DNA of 64,000 nt. Source: Pseudoclavibacter endophyticus. Lineage in GTDB: Bacteria > Actinomycetota > Actinomycetes > Actinomycetales > Microbacteriaceae. The stretch is taken from contig NZ_WBJY01000001.1 of the NCBI RefSeq assembly GCF_008831085.1, positions 1,860,001 to 1,924,000 of the forward strand. Direction: 5' to 3'. Each line of letters begins with the position of its first letter. Position 1 is the first letter of the stretch. The notes under the pieces were generated by a model. It had not been told where the DNA came from. It saw only the letters and a list, made by a program, of their open reading frames with translations, and ran no database searches. Made by a program: the position numbers and the translations under genes. Positions 6,902-13,568 of the stretch are shown here, in pieces.

Positions 6902-6920
6902 CGCCGCCGAACCGGCGGCG
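6902..6920. terminator. Hairpin after the monooxygenase gene
   Basis: CGCCGCC (6902-6908) and GGCGGCG (6914-6920) form a perfect 7-bp stem around a 5-base loop. No T run follows, so termination strength is uncertain. Confidence 0.45.
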
Positions 6921-7018
6921 TGAACGCCCACGGCCGGATGCCCCGGTTGATTTCTCGAATCCTGACCGATTCCGAGAGATCGGCCCACGCATCCGGCCAT
7001 CGCGTTACCGTGATCGGC

Positions 7019-9421
7019 ATGGGCCAAAGCGACGACGCCACGACGACCACCCTCGACCACGCAGACGCCGCGCATCCGGCTGACGCCCACGACACGATCC
7101 GCGTGCACGGCGCACGGGAGAACAACCTGCGCGACGTCGACATCGAACTGCCGAAGCGCCGGCTGACCGTGTTCACGGGTGTTTCGGGATCCGGCAAGAG
7201 CTCGCTCGTCTTCGCGACGATCGCGGCCGAGTCGCAGCGCATGATCAACGAGACCTACACGAGCTTCGTGCAGAGCTTCATGCCGTCGCTCGCGCGCCCC
7301 GACGTCGATCTGCTCGAGGGCCTCACGACCGCGATCGTCGTCGACCAGGAACGGCTCGGGGCCAACCCGCGTTCGACCGTCGGCACGGCGACGGACGCGA
7401 ACGCATACCTGCGGATCCTGTTCAGCAAACTCGGCGACCCGCAGGTCGGGCCGCCGACCGCGTTCGCGTTCAACACCCCATCGGTGTCCGCCAGTGGCGC
7501 CATCACGGTGCAGCGAGGCGACAAGACGATCGCCGAGAAGGCAACCTTCAACCGCATCGGCGGCATGTGCCCCCGATGCGAGGGCACGGGGTCGGTGCAG
7601 GACTTCGATCTGGCGGCGGTGATCGACGACTCGCGGACGCTCGCCGATGGGGCGATCCTCGTGCCCGGCTACTCGATGGACGGCTGGTACGGCCGCATCT
7701 ACGGCGGCTCGGGCTACTTCGACATGAACAAGCCCGTTGGCAGGTTCACGAAGCGCGAGCGGCACGACCTGCTCTACCGGGAACCGACAAAGCTCAAGGT
7801 CGACGGCACGAACCTCACGTACGAGGGCCTGATCCCGCGCATCCAGAAGTCGATGCTCTCGAAAGACGTCGAGGCGATGCAGCCGCACATTCGCCGCTTC
7901 GTCGAGCGTGCCGTGACCTTCGGCCGCTGCCCCGACTGCGACGGCACGCGGCTCGCCGAGCACGCCAGGACGTCGCTCATCGACGGGAAGAGCATCGCCG
8001 ACTGCTGCCGCATGCAGATCGATGAACTCGCGGCGTGGGTGCGCGGCATCGACGCGCCGGGCCTCGGGCCCCTCGTGACGGGGCTGCAGGACCTGCTCGA
8101 CTCGTTCACCGAGATCGGTCTCGGCTACCTGTCGCTCGAGCGACCGGCCGGGTCGCTGTCTGGCGGCGAGGCGCAGCGCATCAAGCTCATCCGCCACCTC
8201 GGGTCATCGCTCACCGACGTCACGTATGTGTTCGACGAGCCGACGATCGGGCTGCACCCGCACGATATCGAGCGCATGAACCGGCTGTTGCTGAGCCTGC
8301 GCGACAAGGGCAACACCGTGCTCGTCGTCGAGCACAAGCCCGAGACGATCGCGATCGCCGACCGCGTCGTCGACCTCGGGCCGGGCGCCGGCTCGGACGG
8401 CGGCGAAATCTGCTTCGAGGGCACCCTTGAGGGGCTGCGACGGAGCGGCACCCTGACAGGCCGCCACCTCGATGACCGGGCGCGCCTCAAAAATGCCGTG
8501 CGCAGCCCATCCGGCGCCCTCGAGATCCGCGGCGCCAACGACAACAACCTGCAGAACGTCGACGTCGACATCCCGCTCGGTGTGCTCACGGTCGTCACGG
8601 GCGTCGCCGGGTCGGGCAAGAGCTCGCTCATCCATGGGGCCCTCGGCGAGCGAGAGGAGGTCATCACGATCGACCAGGGCGCCATCAAGGGCTCGCGACG
8701 CAGCAACCCGGCGACCTACTCGGGCGTGCTCGACCCGATCCGCAAGGCGTTCGCGAAGGCGAACGGGGTCAAGCCCGGGCTGTTCAGCGCGAACTCCGAA
8801 GGCGCGTGCCCCGCCTGCAATGGCGCCGGCGTCATCTACACCGAGCTCGGGTTCATGGACACGGTGTCGACGCCGTGTGAAGTCTGCGAGGGCCGGCGCT
8901 TCGACGCGTCGGTGCTCGAGTACCGGTTCGGCGGGCGCGACATCAGCGAGGTGCTGGCGATGTCGGTCGCCGAGGCCGCGGCGTTCTTCAGCGAGGGCGA
9001 GGCACGCACACCCGCCGCGCACAAGGTGCTGGCGCGACTCGTCGACGTCGGGATCGGCTACATCAAGCTCGGTCAGCCGCTCACGACCCTGTCGGGCGGC
9101 GAGCGCCAGCGCCTCAAGCTCGCCGTGCACCTCGGCGGCGACGGTGACGTCTACGTGCTCGACGAGCCAACGACCGGCCTGCACCTCGCCGATGTGGGCA
9201 ACCTGCTCGGCGTGCTCGACCGGCTCGTCGATGCCGGCAAGACCGTGATCGTCATCGAGCACCACCAGGCGGTCATGGCGCACGCCGACTGGATCATCGA
9301 TCTCGGGCCGGGCGCCGGCCACGACGGTGGGCGCATCGTCTTCGAGGGCGCGCCCCGTGACCTCGTGCTCGACCCCTCGACGCTGACCGGGCAGCACCTC
9401 GCGGCGTACGTGGGGGAGTAG
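7019..9421 (+). CDS. UvrA-like tandem ABC ATPase, short form
   Basis: An 800-residue protein of the excinuclease UvrA family with two ATP-binding cassettes. The first has VSGSGKSS and signature LSGGEAQRIKL; the second has VAGSGKSS and LSGGERQRLKL. Zinc-module cysteines are present (CPRCEGTG with CPDCDGT; CPACNGAG with CEVCEGRRFD). Canonical UvrA is about 950 residues; this one matches the shorter paralogues linked to self-resistance (DrrC-like) rather than the housekeeping UvrA of nucleotide excision repair, and reduction of the UvrB-interaction insert is inferred from length. A TACCGT box seven bases before the ATG suggests a leaderless transcript. It stands alone, with no uvrB, uvrC or drug-biosynthesis genes nearby. 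Confidence 0.85.
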   Translation: MGQSDDATTTTLDHADAAHPADAHDTIRVHGARENNLRDVDIELPKRRLTVFTGVSGSGKSSLVFATIAAESQRMINETYTSFVQSFMPSLARPDVDLLEGLTTAIVVDQERLGANPRSTVGTATDANAYLRILFSKLGDPQVGPPTAFAFNTPSVSASGAITVQRGDKTIAEKATFNRIGGMCPRCEGTGSVQDFDLAAVIDDSRTLADGAILVPGYSMDGWYGRIYGGSGYFDMNKPVGRFTKRERHDLLYREPTKLKVDGTNLTYEGLIPRIQKSMLSKDVEAMQPHIRRFVERAVTFGRCPDCDGTRLAEHARTSLIDGKSIADCCRMQIDELAAWVRGIDAPGLGPLVTGLQDLLDSFTEIGLGYLSLERPAGSLSGGEAQRIKLIRHLGSSLTDVTYVFDEPTIGLHPHDIERMNRLLLSLRDKGNTVLVVEHKPETIAIADRVVDLGPGAGSDGGEICFEGTLEGLRRSGTLTGRHLDDRARLKNAVRSPSGALEIRGANDNNLQNVDVDIPLGVLTVVTGVAGSGKSSLIHGALGEREEVITIDQGAIKGSRRSNPATYSGVLDPIRKAFAKANGVKPGLFSANSEGACPACNGAGVIYTELGFMDTVSTPCEVCEGRRFDASVLEYRFGGRDISEVLAMSVAEAAAFFSEGEARTPAAHKVLARLVDVGIGYIKLGQPLTTLSGGERQRLKLAVHLGGDGDVYVLDEPTTGLHLADVGNLLGVLDRLVDAGKTVIVIEHHQAVMAHADWIIDLGPGAGHDGGRIVFEGAPRDLVLDPSTLTGQHLAAYVGE

Positions 9422-9442: not shown

Positions 9443-9847
9443 TTACGCCTCCCCGGCGTACGAGCCAATGCTGAACGTATTGCCTTCCGGATCGCGCACC
9501 GTGCAGCCCCGGCCACCGTACGGCTCGTCGACGGGGGCCGCGAAGGACGTGCCGCCCGCAGCGAGCGCGCGCTCGTGCGCCGCGTCGACCTCGGCGTCGG
9601 TCTCGACCACGAGGTAGGCGCTCGCTGTGCCGACGGCGTCGTCGGTGGCGTGGGACGCGCCCTCCCGCACCGAGCCCGCCATGAGGCCGCCCGTGTCGCG
9701 CCAGCGGAACTGGGAGTGCTCGACGAGACGCTCATCGTCGGGATTGCGCACCACGAGCACCTCCTCGAACCCGAGAGCCCGGAGGAAGGCAAAGCCGGCG
9801 TCGGCGTCGCGGTACATGACGGTCAGAAAGAGCTGTGGTGTGGTCAT
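9443..9847 (-). CDS. VOC (glyoxalase/bleomycin resistance-like) family protein
   Basis: A 134-residue protein with the paired beta-alpha-beta-beta-beta modules of the vicinal oxygen chelate superfamily: PQLFLTVMYRDADAGFAFL at the start, then AYLVVETDAEVDAAHERALAAGG and GGRGCTVRDPEGNTFSIGSY at the end. The Gly-Arg-Gly then Asp-Pro-Glu-Gly-Asn pattern is typical. The metal ligands are incomplete, so it may be a binding or stress protein rather than an enzyme. Its ATG overlaps the stop of the AraC-type gene (ATGA), so the two are translationally coupled and probably respond to the same signal. Confidence 0.85.
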   Translation of the reverse strand: MTTPQLFLTVMYRDADAGFAFLRALGFEEVLVVRNPDDERLVEHSQFRWRDTGGLMAGSVREGASHATDDAVGTASAYLVVETDAEVDAAHERALAAGGTSFAAPVDEPYGGRGCTVRDPEGNTFSIGSYAGEA

Positions 9848-10743
9848 GACGTCGATGGTTCCGGATGCGGGCGGGTCGCGTCTTGCAGGAATGGGACGGG
9901 ATCCGCGCGGACGGGGAACGGATCGCCGAGCGCGGCGAGCGGGGGACGCCCGGCGAGCTCGCGCCACTCGTTGGCGAGGTGCGATTGATCCGCGTATCCC
10001 GCGAGCGCCGCGACGTCGGCCAGGGGAGTGCCGGAAGCGGCCGACCGCCATGACCGTTCGAAGCGCGCCACCCGTACGAGTCGCTTGGGGCTGAGTCCGA
10101 ATTCCTGCGTGCACCGTCTGGCGAGCTGCCGTCGGCTCCATCCGATCTCGTCCGCGACGGCCTCCACGCGATCGCGCGTGCCGGTCAGCAGCGCCCATGC
10201 CCGCGCGAGGTCGGGCGAGTCGAATCCGGGCGAATGCGGCCCGGGAACTCGGCGCGCCTGCGGGCGATGTCCGTCCGCTCGCCAGTTCTTGACTCGCGCG
10301 AGCAGCCAGCGCTCGAGCAGGTTGAGGCGCTCATGCCACTCGGGCGCGTCGGCCAAGCGTTCATGGAGGCCCGCGGGGATCCCCGCCGACAGCTCGTCAT
10401 GGTGCGCGAGCCCCTCGGAGAGTTCGGCGATGGGAAGACCAAAAATCGCGCGGACACCGAGGGGCGTGAGCGCGAGTTGCACGCCGTGCTGCCGGCCGTG
10501 GGTGTGCACGAGCGACGGGCGCGAGTGGAGGCCTGCGGCGAGACGCCAGAACGGCGTCGAGCGCTCGGGCTGCGCGGCCCATCCCGTGTCGAGCGGCTCG
10601 TCGAATGCCAGAATCACCGTGGCGGTGGTGCTCGGCAAGCCGAAGTGCACAGCACGACGATCGACGTGGAGGTCGTAGCCGACGATCGGACCCGCGAGGA
10701 TGCCCCGCAGACCAGGATGCACACGCCGTTCCGCCACCGACAT
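9844..10743 (-). CDS. AraC-family transcriptional regulator
   Basis: A 299-residue regulator. The C-terminal third carries the double helix-turn-helix: VEAVADEIGWSRRQLARR (first HTH), GLSPKRLVRVARFERS, then PLADVAALAGYADQSHLANEW (second HTH). The N-terminal half begins with strands such as VGYDLHVDRRAVHFGLPS and is likely a cupin-like ligand domain. It is transcribed first in a two-gene operon with the VOC gene. A TACGCT box six bases before the ATG on the minus strand points to a leaderless mRNA. The 157-bp gap to the HTH gene at 10901 is shared by two divergent promoters. Confidence 0.88.
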   Translation of the reverse strand: MSVAERRVHPGLRGILAGPIVGYDLHVDRRAVHFGLPSTTATVILAFDEPLDTGWAAQPERSTPFWRLAAGLHSRPSLVHTHGRQHGVQLALTPLGVRAIFGLPIAELSEGLAHHDELSAGIPAGLHERLADAPEWHERLNLLERWLLARVKNWRADGHRPQARRVPGPHSPGFDSPDLARAWALLTGTRDRVEAVADEIGWSRRQLARRCTQEFGLSPKRLVRVARFERSWRSAASGTPLADVAALAGYADQSHLANEWRELAGRPPLAALGDPFPVRADPVPFLQDATRPHPEPSTS

Positions 10744-10853
10744 GGGCTCAGCGTAGCCTCGCCACGTCCGCGTCAGCAGGATTGCAGGGGTGCAGGGCTG
10801 CAGGCGCCGCAGGCGCCGCAACAGCGTCACGAACTCAACGAGACGCCGCGAGA

Positions 10854-10899
10854 TGTCAAAGTGGGTTGACAACTCGCACCGTGTCAACCACCATTGACA
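10854..10899. promoter_or_regulatory. Twin operators overlapping the promoter of the HTH/Clp-N operon
   Basis: Two perfect inverted repeats of the form TGTCAA-N6-TTGACA occupy 10854-10871 and 10882-10899, separated by 10 bases (28 bases centre to centre). The TTGACA of the first copy (10866-10871) can act as a consensus -35. Seventeen bases on, CACCAT (10889-10894) falls at -12 to -7 from the ATG at 10901, so the mRNA is probably leaderless. Each operator therefore covers one promoter element, an arrangement expected for tight repression, probably by the HTH protein encoded directly downstream (inference). Confidence 0.75.
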
Positions 10900-10900
10900 C

Positions 10901-11107
10901 ATGGAGCACGCATTCGTCGACTCGGCCGCCAGCGACGACCCGGGAGTCGGCCTCCGGGCGGTCGGTTCGCTGCGCGAACTGGCGGACCGCATCGAGGCCC
11001 TCCAGGTGAGGCGCGCCCGCGACCTCGGCTGGTCATGGCAGGAGATCGCGGACGCGCTCGGCGTCACCCGGCAGGCAGTCCACAAAAAGCACGGCAGGAG
11101 AGTCTGA
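10901..11107 (+). CDS. Small helix-turn-helix regulator, 68 residues
   Basis: A short DNA-binding protein. After a variable N-terminal tail come a helix (LRELADRIEALQVRRARDL, residues 24-42) and a helix-turn-helix (WSWQEIADALGVTRQAVHKK, 45-64). There is no ligand domain, so a signal would have to come through a partner. The start codon is directly preceded by the second of two operator palindromes. Its TGA overlaps the ATG of the Clp-N gene by one base, so the two products are made together. The pairing of such an HTH protein with a Clp N-domain protein suggests autoregulation coupled to protein-quality control; this is inference. Confidence 0.8.
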   Translation: MEHAFVDSAASDDPGVGLRAVGSLRELADRIEALQVRRARDLGWSWQEIADALGVTRQAVHKKHGRRV

Positions 11108-11646
11108 TGTTCGAACGTTTCACCCGCGAGGCCCGCGAAGCGGTCATCGGCGCGCAGGAGGTGGCCCGTGAGGCCGGGTCGCACACCATCGACCCGCGAC
11201 ACCTCTTGGTGGCACTGGCGGAGCGCGACGACACGGCGGCCAGAGCGCTGCGCGATTCCGGGGTCGACGTCGACGGGCTCACCATGGCGCTGCGCTCGGA
11301 GCTGAACACTGAGGGACTCGACCAGAAAGCCCTGTCCAGCCTCGGCATCGACCTCGCCGCCATCCGCAGCCACGCAGACGCCACCTTCGGCCCTGGCGCG
11401 CTCGACCGCGCCGGCCACGCTTCCGGTCACATTCCGTTCACCCGAGACGCAAAGAAGTCGCTCGAGCTCGCATTGCGCGAGACGCTCCGCCTCAAACACA
11501 AGACCATCGGCGGTCGACACCTGCTGCTCGGCATGATCCGCGCAGCAGGCCCTGGCCGCGACGCGCTCAGCGACCGGGGCGTCGACCTCGACGAACTCCG
11601 CCGCGCACTGGACGAGCCGGACGCCTCCGGATCACGGGACGCGTGA
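11107..11646 (+). CDS. Clp N-domain protein without ATPase
   Basis: A 179-residue protein made almost only of two Clp-N repeats as in ClpA/ClpC: FTREAREAVIGAQEVAREAG...HLLVAL (about residues 5-40, repeat to 75) and FTRDAKKSLELALRETLRL...HLLLGMI (about 100-140, repeat to 165). No Walker motif follows, whereas ClpC is about 830 residues; the stop is natural and the frame is not broken. Such free-standing N-domains could bind substrates or adaptor proteins in competition with ClpC, or sense damaged protein for the upstream HTH regulator. Function is not established. The gene is coupled to the HTH gene by TGATG. Confidence 0.88.
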   Translation: MFERFTREAREAVIGAQEVAREAGSHTIDPRHLLVALAERDDTAARALRDSGVDVDGLTMALRSELNTEGLDQKALSSLGIDLAAIRSHADATFGPGALDRAGHASGHIPFTRDAKKSLELALRETLRLKHKTIGGRHLLLGMIRAAGPGRDALSDRGVDLDELRRALDEPDASGSRDA

Positions 11647-11785
11647 CCGGGCGAGGGACCAGAATGCAGAGCACAGTGATTGGCGCCGGTGCCGCGCACT
11701 CTCGCCCCTCGCGCCGGCAAGGTCGAGGACCCGCCCAGCCTGCGCGGGTAGGCCGGCCCAGGTTGATGAATACCCCGCAGCGCCG

Positions 11786-12163
11786 TCAGGGGTCGTCTGC
11801 GCCCGGCTGCAGGCGCCGGAGGAGCGACACGAACTGCTCGCGCTCATGGTCGGTGAGCGGTGCCAGCACGGCGGCCTGCACCGCGGCGACGACGGTTGCG
11901 AGCTGGGCGGCTCGAGCGCGCCCGTCCTCGGTCAGCGTCACCAGCTTGCGCCGGCCGTCGTCGGGGTCGGGCTCGCGCGTGACGTATCCGCCGGCTTCGA
12001 GCCGGTCCAGTGTTGTCGAGAGATCGGCGCGGTCAATGTCGGCGAGGCCGGCGATGCCGACCTGGGGGATCGGTCCCTGCTCGTCGAGGACCGCCACGAC
12101 GCGCATCTCGCACCCCGTCGCGCCGATCTCGGCGAGGCGCGATTGCAGGCGCGTCTCGTTCAC
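11786..12163 (-). CDS. MarR-family regulator, possibly N-terminally truncated
   Basis: The 125-residue frame from GTG 12163 has the MarR core: RVVAVLDEQGPIP, a recognition helix region (ADLSTTLDRLEAGGYVTRE), the wing with EPDPDDGRRKLVTLTEDGR, and C-terminal dimer helices ending FVSLLRRL. Full-length members usually have about 15-25 more N-terminal residues forming the first dimer helix. Upstream the frame stays open but its sequence (RSRSSTSLNRST) does not look like that helix. No -10 box or ribosome site of quality precedes the start. The gene may be a remnant or use an unusual start. Confidence 0.6.
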   Translation of the reverse strand: MNETRLQSRLAEIGATGCEMRVVAVLDEQGPIPQVGIAGLADIDRADLSTTLDRLEAGGYVTREPDPDDGRRKLVTLTEDGRARAAQLATVVAAVQAAVLAPLTDHEREQFVSLLRRLQPGADDP

Positions 12164-12203
12164 CGCGGTCGGCACAACACAGCATGCGGCAGCCACACGA
12201 CGC

Positions 12204-12564: not shown

Positions 12565-12924
12565 GTGCTGACACGTGCTTCCCGCATCGACGTGATGAAC
12601 CGGCTCGGCCGAGCCATGGCCGATCCCACCCGTTCGCGGATCCTCATGACGCTCCTCGAAGGTCCGAGCTATCCGGCTGTCCTGTCGCGGTCACTGGAGC
12701 TCTCCCGATCGAACGTGTCCAACCACCTGACGTGCCTGCGCGACTGCGGCATCGTGGTCGCCGAGCCCGAAGGGCGGCGGACCCGTTACGAGATCTCGGA
12801 CCCGCACCTCGCGGCCGCGCTCACCGCGCTCGTCGACGTGACGCTCGCCGTCGACGAGAACGCGGCGTGCATCGATGCCGCGTGCACGGTGCCGGGCTGC
12901 TGCGCGGCGGCGACGACGCGATGA
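12565..12924 (+). CDS. cmtR: CmtR-type ArsR metal-sensing repressor
   Basis: Cadmium/lead-responsive repressor of 119 residues. The winged helix includes MNRLGRAMADPTRSRILMTL and SRSNVSNHLTCLRDCGIV. The two recognition-helix cysteines fall at residues 57 and 61 and a C-terminal cysteine at residue 102, the same numbers as the three metal-binding cysteines of Mycobacterium tuberculosis CmtR; this supports both the call and the GTG start. Four further cysteines are clustered near the end (positions 107-113). It overlaps the cation transporter by ATGA, so metal would relieve repression of its own efflux operon. Confidence 0.93.
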   Translation: MLTRASRIDVMNRLGRAMADPTRSRILMTLLEGPSYPAVLSRSLELSRSNVSNHLTCLRDCGIVVAEPEGRRTRYEISDPHLAAALTALVDVTLAVDENAACIDAACTVPGCCAAATTR

Positions 12925-13568
12925 CCGCATCCCTCACGGACGAGCGCCGCGCAACATTGCACCGCCGCGTGCGCCTCATCGTCGCCTTCACGATCGCGTA
13001 CAACGTGATGGAGGCGATCGTGGCCCTGTGGGCCGGCGCCATGGCTTCCTCGGCGGCCCTGATCGGGTTCGGGCTGGACTCGGTCGTCGAGGTGCTGTCC
13101 GCCGCCGCGATCGCGTGGCAGTTCACCCGCGCGGATCCGGAGCGCTGGGAGAAGATCACGGTGCGGGCGATCGGCGTCGCCTTCTTCGCCCTGGCCGCCT
13201 ACGTCACCGTGGATGCCGTGCTCGCTCTGGTTGCCCAAGAAGGCCCCGAGCACAGCCCGCTGGGTCTCGGGATCACCGCGCTGAGCCTCGTCGTCATGCC
13301 GCTGCTCGCCTGGTTCGAGGTGCGCACGGGCCGCGCGCTCGACTCGAAGAGTGTCATGGCAGATGCCAGGCAGCTCATCCTGTGCATCTACCTCTCCGGG
13401 GCGGTGTTCATCGGCCTGATCCTCAACAGCCTCTTCGGCTGGTGGTGGGCCGACTCGGCGGCTGCGCTCGTCGTCGCGGCCCTCGCGGTCCGCGAGGGAA
13501 TAGAGGCCTGGCGCGGCGACGTCGAATCGCCCTTCGAGGTGCTGGAAGACCTGGGGAACGAGGATTGA
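12921..13568 (+). CDS. Cation diffusion facilitator-like efflux protein
   Basis: A 215-residue inner-membrane protein with about six hydrophobic segments. It resembles the transmembrane half of CDF/cation-efflux proteins: NVMEAIVALWAGAMASSAALIG, then GFGLDSVVEVLSA with the Asp of the first metal-site helix, and WWWADSAAALVVAALAVREG in the last helices. The cytoplasmic C-terminal domain of classical CDF members is absent. Translational coupling to cmtR indicates export of cadmium, lead or a related metal. It ends 10 bases from a converging gene. Confidence 0.85.
   Translation: MTASLTDERRATLHRRVRLIVAFTIAYNVMEAIVALWAGAMASSAALIGFGLDSVVEVLSAAAIAWQFTRADPERWEKITVRAIGVAFFALAAYVTVDAVLALVAQEGPEHSPLGLGITALSLVVMPLLAWFEVRTGRALDSKSVMADARQLILCIYLSGAVFIGLILNSLFGWWWADSAAALVVAALAVREGIEAWRGDVESPFEVLEDLGNED

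What the first reader, a model, noticed from the sequence alone, without database searches (positions are those of the whole stretch)
10854..11646. Tiny HTH regulator and ATPase-less Clp-N protein under a twin operator
Two perfect TGTCAA-N6-TTGACA palindromes, 28 bases centre to centre, cover the -35 and -10 of a leaderless two-gene operon. The operon encodes a 68-residue HTH protein and a protein made only of two Clp-N repeats. The layout suggests a sensor pair in which the Clp-N protein reports substrate or ClpC occupancy to the repressor. I know of no described mechanism of this kind; the Clp-N protein may also be a decoy for ClpC adaptors.
Basis: partly seen in the sequence, partly recalled or inferred. 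Interest (0 to 1): 0.78.

Follow-up and report, generated by a model that had tools for sequence, protein, structure and literature searches.

The report
Two-gene version of antibiotic-sponge regulator ClpC2
This is a small, probably self-repressing operon found in many actinobacteria, in which a tiny DNA-binding protein and a copy of the ClpC protease's docking domain are made as two proteins; it is the two-gene counterpart of ClpC2, a mycobacterial protein known to sense and soak up an antibiotic that attacks ClpC.

Summary
In detail: two exact TGTCAA-N6-TTGACA boxes, 28 bp apart, precede a leaderless-looking pair encoding a 68-aa HTH protein and a 179-aa Clp-N protein without ATPase. The claim that no such mechanism is described is wrong: mycobacterial ClpC2 joins a dimer domain to a Clp-N domain, represses its own promoter through such boxes, is released by cyclomarin A and soaks it up (PMC10030653). 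The window holds a two-gene counterpart. In 80 of 80 loci fetched by HTH similarity a separate Clp-N gene follows; 78 have the twin boxes. New here: (1) ClpC2's N-terminal domain holds the same HTH, cut off in its crystal fragment before the recognition helix, so the HTH is probably the DNA reader; (2) split systems use 18-bp boxes, ClpC2 19-bp, also within one genome; (3) split Clp-N proteins form their own branch with an insertion; (4) the same HTH and boxes also head ABC exporters and beta-lactamase-family hydrolases. Contact between the two proteins, and what they sense, is untested.

The parts
10854..10871 (.). Operator box 1, exact palindrome; its right half (10866-10871) is a perfect -35 TTGACA
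   Evidence: part of a twin operator in 78 of 80 loci; TTGACA in 66 of those 78
10882..10899 (.). Operator box 2, exact palindrome; the putative weak -10 (CACCAT, 10889-10894) lies inside it
   Evidence: 27-29 bp from box 1 in 78 of 78; start codon 1-3 nt after box 2 in 78 of 78
10901..11107 (+). 68-aa HTH protein (P0001), leaderless-looking start; predicted long helix 14-41 and helices 46-53 and 57-64 (HTH); candidate autorepressor related to the ClpC2 N-terminal domain
11107..11646 (+). 179-aa Clp-N protein without ATPase (P0002); positions aligned with the cyclomarin contacts F2/F80/E89 of ClpC1 are F2/F111/E120; about 30 extra residues between the repeats

Best explanation
The locus is a two-gene counterpart of ClpC2. 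A dimer of the HTH protein binds each box and blocks the -35 and -10 of its own leaderless promoter (inferred from homology and anatomy). The Clp-N protein, a mimic of the ClpC N-terminal docking domain with the peptide pocket kept, is both effector and sensor: in the uninduced state it supports repression by contact with the HTH dimer (inferred), and when its pocket is filled by a ClpC-targeting peptide, a misfolded or tagged protein, or another ClpC ligand, repression is lost, the operon is induced and the new Clp-N protein soaks up the ligand and protects ClpC1 (release by cyclomarin A and sponge action are shown for fused ClpC2 in mycobacteria; inferred here).
For: ClpC2 is the natural fusion of the same two parts: 8 of 8 ClpC2 frames from genomes of family f22 match the HTH profile (E 2e-4 to 4e-9). 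The dimer salt-bridge pair D46-R57 of ClpC2 aligns with D29/R40 of the window (counted by me on the alignment): D or E in 56 of 57 and R in 56 of 57 Clp-N-partnered HTHs sampled. Positions aligned with the cyclomarin contacts are kept in the window and in 81 (F2), 77 (F111) and 69 (E120) of 84 split proteins. The Clp-N model (mean pLDDT 85.6) matches the ClpC1 N-domain, drug-bound forms among them (best Foldseek E 7e-9).
Against: The split Clp-N branch is distinct from ClpC2 and has an insertion, so function may differ. The HTH-operator module also heads genes with no Clp-N, so it need not use Clp-N as a sensor; in the ABC-partnered HTHs the acid of the dimer pair is an alanine in 6 of 11. Taylor et al. 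place DNA binding in the Clp-N domain helix with R185/R189; of the aligned positions R124 is kept in 80 of 84 split proteins but R128 in only 43. Ecumicin and ilamycin bind ClpC2 without inducing it (PMC12913811, passages), so a conserved pocket does not guarantee sensing. Of the 80 loci L046 has no boxes and L069 has degenerate ones; the G105 split locus (L148) shows only one box. The sequence match of the HTH profile to the ClpC2 crystal fragment is weak (E 0.023), and Foldseek with the HTH model found nothing significant.
Confidence: 0.57

Rival explanations
1. The HTH protein is the whole regulator; the Clp-N protein is only the regulated product (sponge, holdase or competitor for ClpC clients). 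Induction comes from loss of the HTH protein itself, for example by proteolysis, or from its own ligand, and the partner gene is exchangeable.
For: Of 67 loci with twin 18-bp operators that I opened, 61 have the HTH family just downstream; 38 have a Clp-N partner, 11 an ABC exporter, 6 a beta-lactamase-family hydrolase, 6 an unassigned partner. The window's own genome has such a copy with a beta-lactamase-family partner (L130/L212).
Against: HTH sequences cluster by partner (hydrolase-partnered 97, fused 100 SH-aLRT; ABC-partnered only 64; few columns), as expected if they adapted to a partner, though common descent alone would do this too; in ClpC2 the two parts are one protein and a ligand of the Clp-N part changes DNA binding (PMC10030653).
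Confidence: 0.3
2. The Clp-N protein itself reads the DNA, as proposed for the ClpC2 C-terminal domain, and the HTH protein serves for dimerisation or architecture.
For: ClpC2 R185A/R189A binds DNA less well (PMC10030653, section 11); the first arginine is kept in 80 of 84 split proteins.
Against: The second arginine is kept in only 43 of 84. In vivo the arginine double mutant raised clpC2 mRNA 2.0-fold against 4.6-fold for the N-domain dimer mutant R57A, and the Clp-N part alone is named with R57A among the variants whose EMSAs showed the need for the dimer. The N-domain crystal fragment ends at residue 72, just before the recognition helix, so a whole HTH could not be seen there. ABC- and hydrolase-partnered copies have the operators without Clp-N beside them.
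Confidence: 0.06
3. Toxin-antitoxin-like pair: the HTH protein is an antitoxin of the RelI kind and the partner is toxic.
For: The HTH profile matches RelI (9sdc, E 8e-4); the RelS-RelI paper suggests that RelI-type HTHs came from ClpC2 (PMC13284704, passages).
Against: The partner matches Clp-N and Clp ATPase N-terminal families, no toxin family; no PADLOC family matched either protein.
Confidence: 0.03

Closest known systems
ClpC2 (Rv2667 and relatives; PMC10030653)
   Same: HTH-containing dimerising domain plus Clp-N domain; start codon right after twin palindromes with GTCAAC/GTTGAC halves over -35 and -10; kept positions of the drug pocket; kept acid/arginine dimer pair
   Different: Two proteins instead of one; operator 18 bp (N4) instead of 19 bp (N5); extra residues between the Clp-N repeats (73 in the window, about 79 on average, against 42-43); separate branch in the Clp-N tree; found together with ClpC2 in some genomes; DNA reading assigned here to the HTH
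ClpC1 N-terminal domain (3WDB, 6CN8, 3WDC)
   Same: Clp-N double repeat; residues aligned with F2, F80, E89 kept; best Foldseek E 7e-9
   Different: No AAA+ modules; insertion between the repeats; gene follows an HTH gene under twin operators
RelI antitoxin family (9SDC; PMC13284704)
   Same: Related small actinobacterial HTH (profile E 8e-4)
   Different: Partner is the RelS toxin, not Clp-N
M. smegmatis ClpC3 (PMC10864484, PMC10914731, PMC10454040; passages only)
   Same: A review calls it a small Clp protein that binds cyclomarin and ecumicin
   Different: Whether it is of the split kind was not checked. One paper labels MSMEG_3761 clpC3; another found MSMEG_3761 transcribed alone (PMC5660060, passages), which speaks against a pair if that label is right. 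The primary paper (Hoi 2023) is not held

Membership tests
ClpC2 (strict, one polypeptide) | HTH/dimer domain fused to a Clp-N domain in one protein | tested here: not met
   Separate ORFs with TGATG overlap in the window; separate frames in 80 of 80 relatives fetched
ClpC2-like system (wide sense) | N-terminal domain homologous to the ClpC2 N-terminal domain | tested here: met
   HTH profile hits 8ADA weakly (E 0.023, residues 35-72) and 8 of 8 ClpC2 frames at E 2e-4 to 4e-9; 27 of 30 loci with 19-bp twin operators, the same 8 genomes included, are HTH-plus-Clp-N fusions placed right after the operator
ClpC2-like system (wide sense) | Twin palindromic operator with GTCAAC/GTTGAC halves over -35/-10, leaderless start | tested here: met
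   half-site gap differs by one base; leaderless start inferred from geometry; the generic promoter scan found no promoter
ClpC2-like system (wide sense) | Cyclomarin contacts F2/F80/E89 (ClpC1 numbering) conserved | tested here: met
   F2, F111, E120 in the window; 81, 77 and 69 of 84 split proteins
ClpC2-like system (wide sense) | Clp-N part groups with the ClpC2 C-terminal domain | tested here: not met
   84 split rows and the window lie apart from 8 ClpC2 and 33 ClpC1 rows (branch support 89/91, below the tool's mark of 95/80 for the first value)
ClpC2-like system (wide sense) | Autorepression lifted by a ClpC-targeting peptide; sponge protection | not testable with these tools
   Needs bench work; shown for mycobacterial ClpC2 in PMC10030653
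ClpC AAA+ unfoldase | Walker motifs and AAA+ modules | tested here: not met
   Only PF02861 matched; no Walker A
RelS-RelI toxin-antitoxin | RelE/BrnT-type toxin partner | tested here: not met
   Partner is Clp-N

The most novel reading that the evidence does not exclude
The HTH protein and its twin 18-bp operator form a portable, self-contained defence switch that has been joined to different protective outputs against the same class of ClpC-directed peptides: a Clp-N sponge, an ABC exporter and a beta-lactamase-family hydrolase. A one-base difference in half-site spacing (18 against 19 bp) keeps the split switches insulated from ClpC2 when both are in one cell.
Probability: 0.22. Interest if true: 0.75.

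Novelty: new variant of a known kind. Interest (0 to 1): 0.5.

Why it matters
ClpC1 is a drug target, and ClpC2 is the known rescue response to one of its ligands. The split form separates the DNA reader from the sensor, so their contact and the inducing signal can be tested cleanly, and it suggests that the HTH cut off in the published ClpC2 crystal fragment is the true DNA reader. The 18/19-bp difference gives a direct test of how near-identical repressors may stay insulated, and the exchanged partners point to other actinobacterial genes that may answer the same kind of signal.

Tried and rejected
Tried without result: Foldseek with the HTH model gave no match at E 0.001 or better, so the HTH assignment rests on sequence. 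PADLOC gave nothing. The generic promoter scan found no promoter in 10750-11850.

Phage or plasmid origin: 8 phage and 43 plasmid records hold Clp-N matches, all under 60% identity. I opened 1 phage record (Myrna) and 5 plasmid records. Myrna, p3-JPH1, the Nonomuraea record and the Arthrobacter record have no HTH of this family (the Arthrobacter match is a long Clp ATPase frame). The Nocardia farcinica record (2.66 Mb, called a plasmid) has HTH, Clp-N and twin 18-bp boxes; the S. cattleyicolor megaplasmid has HTH and Clp-N but no twin boxes within 2 mismatches. So pairs on large replicons exist; 45 of the 51 records were not opened, and a mobile origin is neither shown nor excluded.

Simple fission of ClpC2 was considered and is not favoured: separate branches, an insertion, and both kinds in one genome. 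Fused ClpC2 in the window's genome: P0002 found only the pair and ClpC1 at E 1e-8, a limited test.

Paper searches on the split pair; on ClpC2; on ClpC3. No listing showed a paper on the two-gene form, but I saw mostly listings and subscription papers (Hoi 2023 among them) are not held.

Rows left out: of the sites listed (a cut list) I did not open six (G072, G078, G098, G115, G190, G229); four of these (G098, G115, G190, G229) have GTCAAG-type boxes like the Xre-type loci L132 and L136. Of the 67 opened, 6 have no HTH of this family at the operator (L132, L136, L178, L188, L190, L205). Searches use 78 of the 80 split loci (L046 and L069 fall out by the 2-mismatch rule) plus 6. One search uses every second of the 78, 12 picked by me out of the 38, and the 6; it leaves out L162, whose frame is shifted. 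The 58 genomes were picked by me, 35 of them from family f22; all 30 loci opened are from f22, and 8 of them are the loci. ABC partners: Pfam for 10 of 11, BLASTP 75% to L118 for L122 after a first frame of mine gave no Pfam match. Hydrolase partners: Pfam for 6 of 6.

Full report
What is there. Two exact 18-bp palindromes at 10854-10871 and 10882-10899, 28 bp apart, lead into an ATG at 10901 that starts 1 nt after box 2. The right half of box 1 is a perfect TTGACA; 17 bp further a weak -10 (CACCAT) lies inside box 2, and the start codon follows 6 nt later, which fits a leaderless transcript. A generic promoter scan did not call this promoter; the -10 matches only 3 of 6 positions. The first gene encodes 68 aa (PF13384, E 1.6e-6), the second, overlapping by one base, 179 aa with two Clp-N stretches and no ATPase.

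Is it conserved? All 80 loci have a separate Clp-N frame next to the HTH frame. 78 of 80 have two boxes 27-29 bp apart within 2 mismatches each, against 3 single matches in 460 kb of the remaining sequence of the same loci. In those 78, box 1 ends in TTGACA in 66, the start codon follows box 2 by 1-3 nt in all 78, and the Clp-N start (taken as the start codon nearest the domain start) overlaps the HTH stop by one base in 30 and lies within 19 nt of the stop codon's first base in 74. Exceptions: L046 has no boxes, L069 has degenerate boxes at the right spacing. Organisms include Promicromonospora, Isoptericola, Cellulomonas, Actinomadura, Streptomyces, Kitasatospora, Rhodococcus, Geodermatophilus and Saccharopolyspora.

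What it is. PMC10030653 (Taylor 2023; abstract, sections 11 and 13, the first of three parts of the Results, and passages seen) describes ClpC2: an N-terminal dimer domain and a Clp-N domain in one protein, binding CGTCAAC-n5-GTTGACG, in many actinobacteria twice, over -35 and -10 of a promoter thought to be leaderless; cyclomarin A binds the Clp-N part, lifts repression and is soaked up. The window has the same logic in two genes. The HTH profile finds the ClpC2 N-domain crystal 8ADA weakly (E 0.023) over residues 35-72, where the chain ends. The crystal fragment thus stops just before the recognition helix. I infer that the HTH, not the Clp-N helix with R185/R189, is the main DNA reader in both systems. 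PMC13284704 (passages) already reports an HTH region in ClpC2 by HHpred; the reassignment of DNA reading is mine. In keeping with it, Taylor et al. saw clpC2 mRNA rise 4.6-fold with the dimer-domain mutant R57A and 2.0-fold with the arginine double mutant. Their R57 and D46 align with R40 and D29 of the window protein; R is kept in 56 of 57 and D or E in 56 of 57 Clp-N-partnered HTHs sampled, but in ABC-partnered HTHs the acid is alanine in 6 of 11. The HTH model has a long helix and an HTH (mean pLDDT 89); Foldseek gave it no significant match.

How it differs from ClpC2. (a) Operator length: ClpC2 loci have 19-bp boxes (8 of 8 loci). Among 58 genomes that I picked, a 19-bp twin pattern occurs in 36, of which 30 are among the 35 of family f22; reversed control 0. 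Of the 30 loci opened, all from f22 and including the 8, 27 are HTH-Clp-N fusions that start just after the boxes, one more (L232) is a fusion with a shifted frame, and two show no match. The 18-bp loci, by contrast, head split systems: none of the 61 HTH frames at 18-bp twins runs on into Clp-N. Of 8 f22 genomes searched with the Clp-N profile, 8 have a ClpC2-sized frame and 5 also have a split pair; in 4 of those 5 the split pair has the 18-bp twin (L187, L209, L210, L211). So both kinds coexist with distinct operators; insulation is inferred. (b) Between two fixed points split Clp-N proteins have on average 79 residues (78 rows) and the window 73, ClpC1 42 and ClpC2 43. (c) In a tree of 126 rows, split rows with the window, ClpC2 rows and ClpC1 rows lie apart; the branch between split and the rest has support 89/91, and the bootstrap had not settled. 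This speaks against recent fission of ClpC2. Positions aligned with the cyclomarin contacts are kept in the window and in 81, 77 and 69 of 84 split proteins.

Partner exchange. A relaxed twin 18-bp pattern occurs in 124 of 394 genomes of the class, reversed control 0. I opened 67 distinct sites (30 fetched by the tool, 37 by me; six listed sites not opened, further matches not listed). 61 have the HTH family just downstream. Partners: Clp-N 38, ABC exporter 11, beta-lactamase family (PF00144) 6, unassigned 6. The window's own genome has a second copy of the hydrolase kind (L130/L212). HTH sequences cluster by partner, with support for the hydrolase (97) and fused (100) groups, not for the ABC group (64), on few columns. 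This is the main evidence that the HTH-operator module can work without Clp-N, and so the main argument for the first rival. At one site (L188) an alpha/beta-hydrolase gene (PF12697) lies right behind the twin operator with no HTH of the family beside it.

Distribution near the window. With P0002 as query (E 1e-8), the 9 other same-genus genomes and 27 other family genomes showed only ClpC1 or nothing; more divergent HTH/Clp-N pairs without canonical boxes exist in the genus (L219, L220). The neighbouring AraC-type gene has no match at E 1e-20 in the 9 other genus genomes. With the nearest tree neighbours being Saccharopolyspora, Nocardioides and Ruania (99/94), horizontal gain is likely.

Mechanism, shown and inferred. 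Shown here by sequence: boxes, geometry, pair, conservation, homology to both ClpC2 parts. Shown elsewhere for ClpC2: autorepression, ligand release, sponge action. Inferred: HTH dimer binds the boxes; Clp-N contacts the HTH dimer; a filled Clp-N pocket lifts repression. The pocket alone does not prove sensing: ecumicin and ilamycin bind ClpC2 without inducing it (PMC12913811, passages).

Verdict. A real operon found in many actinobacteria; the mechanism class is known from ClpC2, and the two-gene form with its own operator length and exchangeable partners is a new variant as far as the paper searches show.

Noticed in passing
L212 / G000:C1:882964-883008 (own genome): Second twin 18-bp operator in the same genome, heading a related HTH and an overlapping beta-lactamase-family (PF00144) gene; similar pairs at L179-L182 and L196.
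   Followed up: partly
L118-L126, L128, L129: In other genera of the window's family the same HTH and twin operator head an ABC exporter (PF00664 in 10, BLASTP for L122).
   Followed up: partly
L215 (phage Myrna gp251); phage Phabba: Mycobacterium phages encode a Clp-N protein; in Myrna (opened) no HTH of the family or boxes lie beside it. Possibly a decoy or adaptor for host ClpC.
   Followed up: partly
L216 (plasmid p3-JPH1) and similar 13-kb plasmids: Plasmids of the M. avium group, p3-JPH1 typed mobilizable, carry a Clp-N ORF; in p3-JPH1 (opened) no HTH of the family or boxes.
   Followed up: partly
L254, L257: Nocardia farcinica record called a plasmid (2.66 Mb): HTH, Clp-N and twin boxes; S. 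cattleyicolor megaplasmid: HTH and Clp-N without twin boxes.
   Followed up: partly
L132, L136; L213 (G000:C1 around 1288635): A different small HTH that looks Xre-type beside what looks like a membrane protein; at L132 and L136 twin GTCAAG-N4-CTTGAC boxes, at L213 similar boxes nearby. A look-alike operator system, judged by eye.
   Followed up: no
L219:479-1468 (-), L220:506-1465 (-): Same-genus genomes: HTH followed by a Clp-N domain fused to a polyketide-cyclase/AHSA1-type domain, no canonical boxes.
   Followed up: partly
L188:2497-3331: Twin 18-bp operator right before an alpha/beta-hydrolase gene (PF12697), no HTH of the family beside it; the genome has a split pair elsewhere (L187), so this may be a second target in trans.
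   Followed up: partly
window 6920-9421, 9446-10743, 11789-12166, 12565-13565: Neighbours: a long ABC ATPase that looks UvrA-like, glyoxalase-family and AraC-type genes, a MarR-type regulator, an ArsR-type regulator with a cation efflux gene (Pfam); the AraC-type gene has no match at E 1e-20 in 9 other same-genus genomes.
   Followed up: partly
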